Shown here: positions 29,489 through 33,462 of the stretch, one piece after another
Layout: each line of letters begins with the position of its first letter
Position numbering within the stretch: position 1 is the first letter of the stretch
Origin: Acidobacteriota bacterium
GTDB lineage: Bacteria; Acidobacteriota; Terriglobia; UBA7540
DNA length: 64,000 nt
Direction: 5' to 3'
Assembly: GCA_004298155.1 (NCBI GenBank)
Contig: SCRD01000017.1
Location: forward strand, 62,001-126,000
Program-made: the position numbers and the translations under genes
Notes under the pieces: generated by a model
What the model saw: the letters and a program-made list of their open reading frames with translations, nothing else
Databases searched by the model: none
What the model was told of the DNA's origin: nothing

Positions 29489-29812
29489 TCGCCCCGGCAC
29501 AGCGGCAATCTCAAAAAGCCTTCCCCTCTGCCTGGGGAGAGGGTGACCGCGCCAGCAATCGGGTAGAGAGATTTTCCCGCAGTGGCGACCTTACCTCGCC
29601 GCATCGGGGAACTCACGGCGGCATAAAGCCGCCGCTACGGGTCGGCACGTGGGGATCTACTGCCATCTGAAATCTTAAATCCCCTGCGGTGGGCGTGCAG
29701 GCGTGGCACGGGCGTCCAGCCCGTGTCGGGCCACGGCCGCCAGGATGACAATCACGCATGTTGAGATTTTGCCGGGATCGGATGGTGTCAAAGTGCAATT
29801 CCTCCGCATTAA

Positions 29813-29971
29813 GTAGCGCGGGCCTTTATGGCCCGCGGTTCTTGTTCTCGTAGCGTGGACCTCTGGCCTCGAGGCCCGCGGCTCTTGTTCTTGTAACGCC
29901 GGCCCTGACGGCCCGCGGTCCTTCGTTTGGAAAATCCCAAAAAAGCCGCAGGCCGTAAAGGCCTGCGCTAC
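29813..29971. repeat. REP/BIME-like composite repeat, copy 1 (expanded)
   Basis: The element has left arms of about 26 bp beginning GTAGCG or GTAACG at 29813-29838, 29850-29882 and 29893-29918, and a right arm ending GCCTGCGCTAC at 29946-29971. Each arm is itself a hairpin (for example GCGGGCCTTTATGGCCCGC), and the right arm is the reverse complement of the left-arm type. It is a multi-arm version of the elements at 31669 and 33313. Confidence 0.75.
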
Positions 29972-30049
29972 AACCCAGGCCCGGAGGGCCGATAGATTTT
30001 AGCCCACGCCGCAAGCCGTGGGAATACTCCGCGCACAAAGGAATTAACA

Positions 30050-30081
30050 CCCTCTCCGAGGGGAGAGGGCTGATTTTTTTT
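30050..30081 (+). terminator. Hairpin followed by T-run (repeat-derived terminator-like)
   Basis: CCCTCTCCGAGGGGAGAGGG (30050-30069) folds into a strong stem and is followed four bases later by eight T residues (30074-30081). It belongs to the short CCCTCTCC palindrome family also seen at 29523 and 31247, but only this copy has a T-run, so it may end plus-strand transcripts. Confidence 0.5.
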
Positions 30082-30313
30082 GAAGCGGCAGGCCACAAGG
30101 CCCTGCGATAACCGGGCCTCAACCCTTTTATCTTTTTTAAACCAAACCTCCGCACACCGTAAAGGCGCGCGCTACACCGCGGCCCTGGTTGAGGGCTGTT
30201 ATGTTGCAATTCGCATATCTTGCGTAATATAGTTGCGGTCTTGAATCCGCGATGAATGTGTATTGCGCACGTCATGGCGATGCGGTGGAAGCGGTGTCCT
30301 TGGGGAGTGCGAG

Positions 30314-31126
30314 ATGCCACGAAAATTCTATTTCGACACAGATATCTTCCGCAATATTGGTAAAACATTTGAAAATGCGGCCCTGCCCAATGACCTCAGG
30401 GGAAATTTGCTCGTCTCCCCTCTGAGCGCCTTCGAGGTTATCTCACAGCTCTCGACGGCGGCAGGCGACGAGATCCTGCGTCAGATTCATGCCATCCGCA
30501 ATTGGGTCAATCCAGAAAGGGCAGGTATGCTCCCTTGGCCCGATGACGTCCTCTTGAACGTTGGGTTCGGGATGCCTATGAGGGAAGATGATTTCACACA
30601 ACGGATGGCGAACGCTTTTAAAATCTGCCTCGCCGCGACTTCAGTTGAACCTCTCCGGGAAGAAGCACACAGGGTTAAGGAGATGCTGGACGAAACCAAA
30701 CTCAGGAACGCCCAAGATTTTGGGCGGCTACTCAAAGCGGCCAGAAGGGAGTCACCGAAGGGGGATTGGTTCTCGGACCCTTGGTATCAGGGTATCGCAA
30801 GGAGGGTGAACGCAAACCCGGAGACAAGATCCGCTGATGCAATCGCGGCCACCTTCAACGCCTATCGGGAGTTTGAACGAGTCAAACTGCAGACCGCCCT
30901 GAAAGAGAAAGACTACAATGTGGAGAAGCATAAGAACGACTTATTTGATGCAGAACAGCTGATCTATCTCGGCAGCCCAGATTTGTATTTCCTGACTTGC
31001 GATAAAGGTTTTTCTCGCGTGAATCAATCCGCGCAATTTGAACGTGTCATGATAGTTCCGCTGGATGAGATTTCTGACGTTCATCGGGTTGAAGCACTGT
31101 TGAGGAAACAATTGAGCGCGGTGTAG
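30314..31126 (+). CDS. PIN-like domain protein
   Basis: The ATG at 30314 follows GGGGAG. The 270-residue protein starts with YFDTDIFRNI and contains SAFEVISQL, then near the C-terminus DLFDAEQLIYLG and FLTCDKGFSRV. The order of acidic residues (Asp near the N-terminus, Glu about 40 residues on, Asp pairs late) matches PIN-like nucleases. It is longer than VapC toxins because of a helical middle part, and no antitoxin-like gene is adjacent, so a stand-alone RNA-processing or defence role is as likely as a toxin role. It sits within the repeat-rich island, consistent with mobility. Confidence 0.6.
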   Translation: MPRKFYFDTDIFRNIGKTFENAALPNDLRGNLLVSPLSAFEVISQLSTAAGDEILRQIHAIRNWVNPERAGMLPWPDDVLLNVGFGMPMREDDFTQRMANAFKICLAATSVEPLREEAHRVKEMLDETKLRNAQDFGRLLKAARRESPKGDWFSDPWYQGIARRVNANPETRSADAIAATFNAYREFERVKLQTALKEKDYNVEKHKNDLFDAEQLIYLGSPDLYFLTCDKGFSRVNQSAQFERVMIVPLDEISDVHRVEALLRKQLSAV

Positions 31127-31246
31127 GCTTAGGCCGCGACTAACAATTCCCGGCTGGCCGGTCGCGTTGTGAAGGCAGGGGTTAGTTTATAGTGGATGGT
31201 TCTCAGCAAAGAAATGACCCCTCACCCGTCACGCCAAGTCGCGACA

Positions 31247-31267
31247 CCCTCTCCCCAAGGGAGAGGG
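31247..31267. repeat. CCCTCTCC-type intergenic palindrome
   Basis: CCCTCTCCCCAAGGGAGAGG and one further G form a near-perfect hairpin. Similar palindromes occur at 29523-29543 and 30050-30069, and a degenerate one near 31291-31315, so this is a local family of short intergenic repeats. Confidence 0.6.
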
Positions 31268-31403
31268 CTAATACTCTTTGATGGCTTGCGCGCCCACTCT
31301 CTCCCAGAGGTAGAGGGAATTGATTTTCACGGTGGGCCGGTGCGGGGTGGCTGAAGCCATCCCCTCCTAAACCGCAAGCCACAAGCGCCCGCACGTCACA
31401 TTA

Positions 31404-31634
31404 CTACCGGATCTTTTCTGACGTGCGGCTGGCGATCCAATTCAGGATGCCGAGTGCCGGGACCCAATAAGGGAAGATTCCGTAGAGAGTGTCGCTCACG
31501 GAATGCGAATGGCGGTCAATCGCCAGGAAAGTATTCGTGCAGAACAGGAGCGTGAGGACCACGGCCAGCCATCCCGCCGCCGAAACCGGCGCGTAAATCC
31601 ATCTCCAGGGCTTGAACCAGATTCGATTCTTCAT
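31404..31634 (-). CDS. Small membrane protein of unknown function
   Basis: GGAGGAG lies 6 nt before the ATG at 31634, giving 76 residues. Two hydrophobic helices are visible (AGWLAVVLTLLFCTNTFLAI and TLYGIFPYWVPALGILNWIA) with RHSHSVSD between them. The segment order and HSVSDTLYG motif seem conserved in small Acidobacteriota proteins as far as I can recall, but no function is known to me. A composite inverted repeat lies immediately upstream. Confidence 0.65.
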   Translation of the reverse strand: MKNRIWFKPWRWIYAPVSAAGWLAVVLTLLFCTNTFLAIDRHSHSVSDTLYGIFPYWVPALGILNWIASRTSEKIR

Positions 31635-31668
31635 GGGGGGCTCCTCCGGATTCTGCACCGTGGGTTTT

Positions 31669-31754
31669 GTAGCGCGGGCCTTTATGGCCCGCGGCTCGTC
31701 ATTTGAAATAACATCTAAGAACTAAGAACCGCAGGCCGTAAAGGCCTGCGCTAC
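31669..31754. repeat. REP/BIME-like composite inverted repeat, copy 2
   Basis: The left arm (31669-31695, starting GTAGCGCGGGCC) and right arm (31728-31754, ending GGCCTGCGCTAC) are inverted copies matching at 23 of 27 positions, and each is itself a hairpin. The spacer contains CGTCATTTGAAATAACATC. Copy 3 at 33313-33391 is nearly identical except for a 7-bp indel. The TAG stop of the DUF4173 gene lies inside the right arm. Confidence 0.85.
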
Positions 31755-33253
31755 GCATGCCGTCTTTGCCCGCCCGTACAGGACATCTGTTCCAGCGCGG
31801 CACGATAGCTTTCGACGGCTTCGGCGGCCCGTGCGCGGCCCCAACTCCACGACCGCCAGTCGCCGCGTTCACCGGCTGGCCATTGCTTCAGGATTCGCGT
31901 GGCGATTGTGCGGCTTTCCTGCGGTTTCAGTTCCGAGAGATGCGCCGCCAGCGCCGGCACAGCGTCAGCGCTCAACCCGACAACGTAGCCCGCATCAAAG
32001 CGCCGCCCTTCCAGGGCACGCTCCACGTTGATCCGTGCGATCAGCGCGTCGGGGCTCACAACGTGCAGCACGCCGATCAGCGCAAAGCCAGCCAGCATGG
32101 CGCCGAAGGCAAAACGTTCCCGGCGGCCGCGCAGAACAGTGAAGGCAAACCACACAAACACCACCGCCAGCCAAGCCATGAAGGCGGTCGCGTAAAGACG
32201 CTGCTCGGTCAATCCGAACTGATCTGTGTAAAGCCGCATCCGCTCGAGCGCCGAGGCCATGATGACGAACAGGAGAACGATCTGCACGCCCGCAAGGCCC
32301 CGGAAGAGGCGCGCGTGCTGCGGATTTTCCTGCCGCAACAGCCAGTGCGCCGCCAGCAGCAGTGGCAGAACCAGCGCCGCCACGGCAACCAGTTCAAAAA
32401 ATCCATGGCGCGCATACTCGGCGTAGCTCAGCCCCGGCGTGATTCCCACCAGCGACGCGCCCCCAAACAGGTAACGCACCTGTACGGCGACGAAGGCCAG
32501 GAACAGCAGATCAAGGAGCCCCAGCACGATGCCCACTTCAGTGATGCCCAATGAAAACAGGCGGGGAAGTTCACTCGGTTGCTGGGGCACAGCGTTTGAT
32601 ATTAAGAGGCTGCGCAGCCAGCCCGCCACAATCCAGCCGCAAAAGAAAATCACAAAAGCGTGCACGAATAACCGCGGGAGATTAATGTGGAACGTTGAAC
32701 GCACCAGGTTGTCAAACACGACGTCAGCCGACATCAGCAGCACGCCGAAAACCAGCAGCGGCGGCACCGCCAGCGCCACGCCACGGCCCACCGCCAGCAC
32801 CGGCCGCCCACGGTTTTCGCGCGAGATTTCTTTCCACTCGATATCGCCGAAAACCAGTGCGAAAAGTCCGAGTGCCGTATAAGCCCCTGCTGCCACCGCC
32901 GCTGCAAAATAATGGAAAAGGCTGGCCAGCGGCACCCGCACGCGACCCAGCAGGGGAGAAGCCAGCGCTAGCGCCACCAGAATCGCCAGGATATCCATCA
33001 GCTGCAGGGGAACGGAGGCCCGCCAGGCAAAACAAGCCCCGAAAGCGATAACGGGCGCCAGCATCCAGCGGTTTACCCGCGTACCGGAGGAAGGCTGAAG
33101 CCGGACAATGATTGCGACCGTCGCCACCAGAAAAGCCAGCCACAGGAAGACGTTCAGACCCCAGGGGAACTGCCGCAGTAAAAGGTCGCCGAGAACTCCC
33201 ATCACTGCCGCCCCGGCGAATACACGCAAGGCCAAAACAGTCTTTTCGCCCAT
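31751..33253 (-). CDS. DUF4173-domain integral membrane protein
   Basis: The 500-residue protein has about a dozen hydrophobic segments and the DUF4173 pattern (GDIEWKEISRENRGRP loop, FGVLLMSADVVFDNLV, GLSYAEYARHGFFELVAVA, MRLYTDQFGLTEQRLYATAF). A soluble C-terminal segment follows. Family function is unknown; members often sit near two-component systems or other membrane proteins. The stop codon lies in the inverted repeat that borders the gene, and an almost identical repeat lies just upstream at 33313-33391, so the gene is bracketed by direct copies. Confidence 0.75.
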   Translation of the reverse strand: MGEKTVLALRVFAGAAVMGVLGDLLLRQFPWGLNVFLWLAFLVATVAIIVRLQPSSGTRVNRWMLAPVIAFGACFAWRASVPLQLMDILAILVALALASPLLGRVRVPLASLFHYFAAAVAAGAYTALGLFALVFGDIEWKEISRENRGRPVLAVGRGVALAVPPLLVFGVLLMSADVVFDNLVRSTFHINLPRLFVHAFVIFFCGWIVAGWLRSLLISNAVPQQPSELPRLFSLGITEVGIVLGLLDLLFLAFVAVQVRYLFGGASLVGITPGLSYAEYARHGFFELVAVAALVLPLLLAAHWLLRQENPQHARLFRGLAGVQIVLLFVIMASALERMRLYTDQFGLTEQRLYATAFMAWLAVVFVWFAFTVLRGRRERFAFGAMLAGFALIGVLHVVSPDALIARINVERALEGRRFDAGYVVGLSADAVPALAAHLSELKPQESRTIATRILKQWPAGERGDWRSWSWGRARAAEAVESYRAALEQMSCTGGQRRHA

Positions 33254-33312
33254 GGGGTGAATCCTCCAGTCACGGGTTTGTAGGGGAGCCCTCCAGGCTC
33301 TCGCAGGGTTTT

Positions 33313-33391
33313 GTTGCGCGGGCCTTTACGGCCCGCGGCTCGTCATTTGAAATAACATCTAAAAACCGAAGGCCGTAAAGGCCTGCGCTAC
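33313..33391. repeat. REP/BIME-like composite inverted repeat, copy 3
   Basis: This 79-bp element is nearly identical to copy 2 in arms and in the CGTCATTTGAAATAACATC spacer, in the same orientation, with a 7-bp deletion in the spacer. A degenerate right arm follows at 33414-33439. Confidence 0.85.
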
Positions 33392-33462
33392 ATTGGCGAA
33401 AAACACCTAACGACCGCAGATCACAAGGATCTGCGCTACATATGCCGTGCTGGAGCCCTGCG

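What the first reader, a model, noticed from the sequence alone, without database searches (positions are those of the whole stretch)
29813..33439. Family of composite inverted repeats of about 80 bp (REP/BIME-like) flanking DUF4173
Copies at 31669-31754 and 33313-33391 are nearly identical direct repeats, including the non-palindromic spacer CGTCATTTGAAATAACATC. Each has inverted arms of about 26 bp that are themselves hairpins. A three-left-arm version lies at 29813-29971 and single arms at 30084-30108, 30152-30175 and 33414-33439. The shared spacer shows that whole units move or are copied, as in BIMEs mobilised by RAYT transposases. The two direct copies bracket the DUF4173 gene, so recombination could delete it.
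Basis: partly seen in the sequence, partly recalled or inferred. Interest (0 to 1): 0.55.

Follow-up and report, generated by a model that had tools for sequence, protein, structure and literature searches.

The report
RAYT-linked REP hairpin repeats in Acidobacteriota
The repeats are a real, genome-wide family of short hairpin sequences of the REP/REPIN type, and the genome carries a matching transposase gene set among copies of the same repeat; this is a known kind of bacterial miniature mobile DNA, here in a soil phylum where this form seems little described.

Summary
Observation confirmed. The 31669-31754 and 33313-33391 units are direct copies (75 of 86 aligned columns) of an inverted pair of REP arms. 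Each arm is GTAG + 8-bp stem + 5-nt loop, followed by a conserved YYCTT. The arms are not local: a covariance model finds 59 in the 5.2-Mb genome. With a strict pattern there are 47, against 10 and 14 in two congeners, 3 in the 58 other relatives, and 0 for the reversed control pattern. A RAYT gene lies inside the densest REP cluster (match C10:37047-37589). Its best solved relative by sequence and by fold is E. coli TnpA-REP bound to a REP hairpin, PDB 4er8, and it keeps the HuH motif, the catalytic Tyr and W94/Q95/R104. REP/REPIN/RAYT reading: supported. Corrections: the gene is DUF4153, not DUF4173; one of the 'three left arms' belongs to another REP family. The deletion idea is open: congener G002 lacks DUF4153 and has a REP doublet at that site, but two other genomes lack DUF4153 with no REP there. 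New member of a known kind.

The parts
31669..31754 (+). REPIN copy 1: arm 'a' 31669-31694 (+), spacer, arm 'b' 31729-31754 (-); lies between the 84-aa ORF and the end of DUF4153
33313..33391 (+). REPIN copy 2: arm 'a' 33313-33338 (+, GTTG foot), spacer 7 nt shorter, arm 'b' 33366-33391 (-); lies between DUF4153 and uppS
29813..29971 (+). mosaic REP cluster: REP-A arm 29813-29838 (+), arm of another GTAG family 29850-29881 (+), decayed REP-A arm 29893-29918 (+), REP-A arm 29946-29971 (-)
30086..30111 (-). decayed single REP-A-like arm (4 mismatches)
30150..30175 (-). decayed single REP-A arm (3 mismatches)
33414..33439 (-). single REP-A arm with compensated stem changes (4 mismatches, 8-bp stem intact)
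33280..33304 (+). arm of a second GTAG family (GTAGGGGAGCCC...), shared with congener G001
31751..33253 (-). DUF4153 membrane-protein gene; its TAG stop codon (31753-31751) is part of the GTAG of REPIN copy 1
31404..31658 (-). 84-aa ORF, duplicated together with REPIN copy 1 at C16:70001-70344

Best explanation
The repeats are REP elements of one family (REP-A), in part arranged as REPINs: two REP hairpins facing each other with GTAG outward and a short spacer. They are non-autonomous miniature elements. The RAYT (TnpA-REP, a single-strand HuH/tyrosine endonuclease) encoded at C10:37047-37589 most likely binds the folded arm on single-stranded DNA, reads GTAG as guide, cuts at a CT next to the hairpin (the conserved YYCTT just 3' of each arm fits), and so moved the units into intergenic DNA, sometimes at gene ends. 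Shown here: sequence, predicted fold, copy number, extragenic position, doublet order, cognate RAYT with conserved catalytic and GTAG-region residues. Inferred: cutting, movement, and that this RAYT made these copies. Any effect on DUF4153 is taken as a side effect.
For: 59 arms genome-wide; 47 by strict pattern, reversed control 0. Conservation starts at GTAG and ends after YYCTT. Unit-only copies at C13 and C7 with unrelated flanks. 10 of 17 close pairs are GTAG-outward, none inward; 9 of those 10 join an 'a' with a 'b' arm. 10 of 53 arms in a crude ORF set covering 84.5% of the DNA. RAYT among REPs of the same sequence, nearest solved protein E. coli TnpA-REP 4er8 by sequence and fold. RAYT homologues in Acidobacteriota are flanked by their own GTAG hairpins (36 of 39 loci) and REP and RAYT distances correlate (r 0.66, 0 of 5000 permutations).
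Against: No clean empty site was found. The C16 copy came with its neighbouring ORF, so some spread is by larger duplication. 24 of 53 arms are not in close pairs. G001 and G002 hold REP-A arms without a near-identical RAYT-A (best 55% and 54%), so the REP family is not strictly tied to this RAYT. The Mantel correlation is also expected from common descent. RAYT-A has the nearest REPs in the less usual, inward order.
Confidence: 0.87

Rival explanations
1. The copies spread mainly by ordinary segmental duplication and recombination, with REPs carried along, not by RAYT action.
For: 84-aa ORF plus REPIN are duplicated together at C16; RAYT-A lies between two direct arrays (173 nt at 92%, 118 nt at 86%).
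Against: Units at C13 and C7 share the doublet but not the flanks; arms are spread over many contigs and mostly single.
Confidence: 0.1
2. The arms are kept mainly as transcription terminators or mRNA-end hairpins of the host, with mobility long past.
For: Arms are extragenic; REPIN copy 1 begins at the stop codon of DUF4153, and a hairpin of another family takes the same place in G001.
Against: Arms are not held in place between congeners; GTAG, loop and YYCTT are conserved beyond what a terminator needs; the two-family replacement fits insertion better.
Confidence: 0.1
3. Add-on claim: the two direct REPINs around DUF4153 act as a deletion or swap site for the gene between them.
For: DUF4153 present in G001 and absent in G002, which has a REP doublet at the left junction. 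In G001 the neighbouring gap holds a RAYT gene between two direct REP doublets (65 of 71 identical).
Against: G002 lacks the right-hand flank that simple recombination would leave. DUF4153 is found in only 10 of 31 relatives; G008 and G015 lack it with the 84-aa ORF near uppS and no GTAG hairpin there. G001 keeps the gene without REP-A on either side.
Confidence: 0.2

Closest known systems
REPINs of Pseudomonas fluorescens SBW25 with RAYTs (PMC3116915; passages seen)
   Same: inverted REP doublets of about 70-90 bp with conserved spacer, extragenic, folding into one hairpin, single cognate RAYT
   Different: other phylum; two unlike arms per doublet; far fewer copies (47-59 arms); spread by duplication also seen
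E. coli BIMEs and TnpA-REP/YafM (PMC6006769 section 12; PMC8266576 passages; PDB 4er8)
   Same: GTAG foot, two related arm types in one doublet (as Y and Z2 REPs), RAYT with HuH, Tyr and W94/Q95/R104
   Different: no stem bulge; HuH is DHWH and Y motif YIHMNP rather than DHLH and YIHYNP
Acidobacterial TIRYTs (PMC3733652) and class 3 TnpA-Y1 (PMC6006769)
   Same: Y1 transposases with flanking repeats in Acidobacteria
   Different: Those are flanked by repeats unrelated to GTAG or by hairpins with a CnGA foot; class 3 has Y----Q, here Y---NP and GTAG

Membership tests
REP (GTAG superfamily) | 20-40 bp palindrome with GTAG at its foot | tested here: met
   26-nt arm, 8-bp stem, GTAG; foot positions 92-100% conserved over 53 arms
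REP (GTAG superfamily) | many dispersed extragenic copies | tested here: met
   59 arms; 10 of 53 in a crude ORF set covering 84.5%
REPIN | inverted doublet with spacer that recurs as a unit and folds into a hairpin | tested here: met
   10 outward pairs, unit copies at C13 and C7, fold z -6.3 and -5.5; but 24 of 53 arms are not in close pairs
RAYT / TnpA-REP (class 2) | HuH and Y---NP motifs, TnpA-REP fold | tested here: met
   DHWH, YIHMNP; 4er8 best by sequence and fold
RAYT / TnpA-REP (class 2) | gene flanked by REPs of its own family, one gene per family | tested here: met
   REP-A arms both sides; next own homologue 52% identical with other REPs
RAYT / TnpA-REP (class 2) | cuts and joins single-stranded REP DNA | not testable with these tools
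   needs purified protein
TnpA-REP subclass 2.2 or 2.5 (PMC6006769) | HuH/Y consensus DHLH + YIHYNP (2.2) or DH[LF]H + YI[VI]ANP (2.5) | tested here: not met
   DHWH + YIHMNP; no tree of all subclasses was built
IS200/IS605 insertion sequence | multi-copy transposase gene moving as a unit | tested here: not met
   one full-identity copy in the genome; Y---NP, not Y---Q

The most novel reading that the evidence does not exclude
Acidobacteriota (Terriglobia) carry their own RAYT subclass, marked by a DHWH motif, in several copies per genome. Each copy has a private GTAG-REP family that diverges with it, and REP-doublet-bracketed slots such as the one between uppS and the 84-aa ORF act as swap sites where genes (DUF4153, a second RAYT) come and go between sister species.
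Probability: 0.3. Interest if true: 0.5.

Novelty: new member of a known kind. Interest (0 to 1): 0.33.

Why it matters
REPINs and RAYTs are best known from gammaproteobacteria; PMC2817692 proposed that RAYTs arose after that group branched (passage), and PMC3733652 listed GTAG repeats in Proteobacteria, Cyanobacteria, Chloroflexi and PVC, with TIR-type genes named for Acidobacteria (passages). A complete GTAG-REP/RAYT pair with many sister pairs in Acidobacteriota gives another set for testing how RAYTs and REPs stay matched, and shows the same intergenic slots taken by different REP families in sister species.

Tried and rejected
Empty-site search: stretches of C7 and C13 with unit-only REPINs against G001 and G002 gave broken, repeat-driven matches and no clean empty site. 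A simple REP-REP recombination scar in G002 was looked for and not found. Local-only repeat: rejected. Plain terminator hairpins: rejected as the full account, because arms are not kept in place between congeners. IS200 remnant: rejected (one full-identity copy, GTAG arms). The NCBIfam scan failed on coordinates and was not repeated. Papers: full text searched; no paper on GTAG-REP/RAYT pairs in Acidobacteria appeared in those listings, but only open-licence papers are held, and the 2017 RAYT classification (PMC5581495) is not held.

Limits of controls: the random-sequence control used a loose prefilter that the real scan did not have, so (reversed pattern) is the control I rely on. In one search, 61 of the 80 named loci plus 3 own loci were used; the other 19 (L123, L139, L147, L156-L158, L160-L162, L168, L172, L177, L180, L182, L183, L186-L188, L193), mostly partial or weak matches, were left out by my choice, and 2 of the 64 had too little flank. 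The named scan itself kept the best 80 of 228. The 39 'acidobacterial' loci include L119, titled Acidimicrobiia in its record; it is one of the three without hairpins. The remaining 23 loci (other phyla) gave a hairpin in the expected place in only 1; the threshold may miss short-stem REPs. The extragenic test used loci chosen because they hold REPs, and its P value treats clustered arms as independent. In one search more than 40 genomes were scored with stricter filters.
Full report
What is there. The two units at 31669-31754 and 33313-33391 are direct copies of one doublet (75 of 86 alignment columns identical). Each doublet is two hairpin arms facing each other: GTAG, an 8-bp stem, a 5-nt loop, then G and YYCTT. 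Over 53 arms from this genome, base conservation starts at the G of GTAG and drops after the T of YYCTT. Each arm folds alone, and the doublet folds into one long hairpin (z -6.3 and -5.5; 0 of 200 shuffles as stable). The two arms of a doublet are not alike: one has stem CGCGGGCC ('a'), the other CGCAGGCC ('b').

Genome-wide family. The window is C17:62001-126000 of a 5.21-Mb, 29-contig genome. BLAST with the unit gives 64 matches at E up to 10, of which the weakest are chance. A covariance model built from 28 arm variants finds 59 arms at E <= 0.01. A 31-nt pattern with up to 2 mismatches gives 47 in this genome, 10 in G001 and 14 in G002 (same genus), 1 in G014, 2 in G022 and 0 in the other 56; the reversed pattern gives 0 in all 61. 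Arms avoid genes: 10 of 53 lie in a crude ORF set that covers 84.5% of the same DNA, and these 10 sit in four doubtful ORFs. Of 17 close pairs (<130 bp), 10 are GTAG-outward, 6 minus-minus, 1 plus-plus, 0 GTAG-inward; 9 of the 10 outward pairs join 'a' with 'b' and the tenth an unassigned arm with 'b'. Unit-only copies with unrelated flanks are at C13:26573 (80 of 86 identical) and, with a shorter spacer, C7:66253. The copy at C16:70252 is different: there the neighbouring 84-aa ORF is duplicated too (221 of 237 positions), so that pair spread, or was copied, as a larger block.

The transposase. Seven PF01797 loci are in the genome. One, matched at C10:37047-37589, lies in the densest REP-A cluster, with REP-A arms on both sides. 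It is a 180-aa protein with DHWH, WQ and YIHMNP. In the PDB its best match by sequence is 4er8, the REP-associated transposase (E 7.9e-19). The alignment places its W, Q and R on W94, Q95 and R104, which PMC6006769 (section 12) describes as well-conserved residues of the GTAG-recognition region, and its Tyr on Y115 (Y115F is the catalytic mutant in PMC8266576, passages). The residue numbering is my own count along the printed alignment. An AlphaFold2 model (mean pLDDT 88.4) finds the same entry first (E 6.1e-12), titled as bound to a REP hairpin. The gene's stop codon TAG is part of the GTAG of the next REP, as is that of DUF4153; PMC3733652 says GTAG REPs often do this.

Each RAYT has its own REPs. 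The genome's other close RAYTs carry other hairpins: C16:846-1361 has GTAGCGCAGAGTTGTTCTGTAACTCTGCG, whose core pattern occurs 15 times here and 0-7 times in each of the 60 relatives; C18:109874-110392 has GTAGCGCGGACCTCC.... Of 61 genomes searched (own included), 44 encode a homologue at E <= 1e-10. A scan of named genomes gave 228 encoded relatives, best 80 kept; the top hits are Acidobacteriota/Terriglobia MAGs, then Planctomycetes and Xanthomonadaceae, so the host is most likely an acidobacterium of the Terriglobia (inference). Of 62 loci with enough flank, 32 have an outward hairpin upstream, 34 downstream, 29 both; shuffled upstream flanks give 6 of 620. Of 39 acidobacterial loci 36 have a GTAG hairpin within 400 nt; the nearest pair is GTAG-outward in 22, inward in 5 and same-strand in 4 of the 31 with both. 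PMC2817692 describes the same outward arrangement around gammaproteobacterial RAYTs (passages). RAYT-A itself is one of the inward cases, set between two direct arrays. RAYT and REP distances correlate (r 0.66, 0 of 5000 permutations, n 35; inside the GTAGCG group r 0.41, 10 of 5000, n 24). Common descent alone would also give this.

The DUF4153 locus. The gene is PF13687 DUF4153, not DUF4173. The likely old order is uppS - DUF4153 - 84-aa ORF. G001 keeps it (91% identical) with no REP-A at either site; a GTAGGGGAGGGC hairpin lies right after DUF4153 instead, and the DUF4153-uppS gap holds a different RAYT gene (THLH, LWQ, YISMNP) between two direct doublets of GTAGGGGAGCCC type (65 of 71 identical). 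The window keeps one arm of that family at 33280-33304, beside REPIN 2. G002 has no DUF4153 match and has a REP doublet beside the 84-aa ORF, then about 300 bp of other DNA up to uppS. A REP-REP crossover would leave the right-hand flank of REPIN 2, which is not seen, so loss by this route is possible but not shown. G008 and G015 lack DUF4153 with the 84-aa ORF near uppS and no GTAG hairpin in the locus. DUF4153 is present in 10 of the 31 genomes searched, own included.

Verdict. REPs, REPINs and a cognate RAYT: supported, by features tested one by one. Movement and cutting by this RAYT: inferred from the family's known biochemistry (PMC8266576, passages). Gene deletion by the two copies: open. 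Novelty lies in the host phylum and the RAYT branch, not in the kind of element. From passages seen, PMC2817692 said in 2010 that no homologues were found in other major lineages than the gammaproteobacteria, PMC3733652 names TIR-flanked genes for Acidobacteria, and PMC6006769 mentions Acidobacteria for class 3 and gives L, V, I, F, Y or M, not W, as the middle residue of HuH in class 2. I did not read their supplements, so acidobacterial GTAG pairs may be listed there.

Noticed in passing
L107 6914-7653 (G001:C33): In the congener the DUF4153-uppS gap holds a different RAYT gene between two direct GTAGGGGAGCCC doublets; the window has one arm of that family at 33280-33304.
   Followed up: partly
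29524-29543, 30050-30069, 31211-31269: Another dispersed repeat of the form CCCTCTCCCCAAGGGAGAGGG, without a GTAG foot, also found near this locus in G001.
   Followed up: partly
29489-30262: This gap is a mosaic of several REP-like families, among them GTAGCGGCGGC... at 29638 (-) and GTGGCACGGGC... at 29703 (+).
   Followed up: partly
30263-31126: A 287-aa ORF without a Pfam match that looks by eye like a PIN-domain protein.
   Followed up: no
L040 8001-8344 (C16:70001-70344): 84-aa ORF plus REPIN duplicated beside a recJ-like gene (named by eye); the two copies differ by as much as this genome differs from G001 in that ORF (221 of 237 both).
   Followed up: partly
L036 1018-2206 (C10): RAYT-A sits between two direct arrays (173 nt at 92% and 118 nt at 86% identity).
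   Followed up: partly
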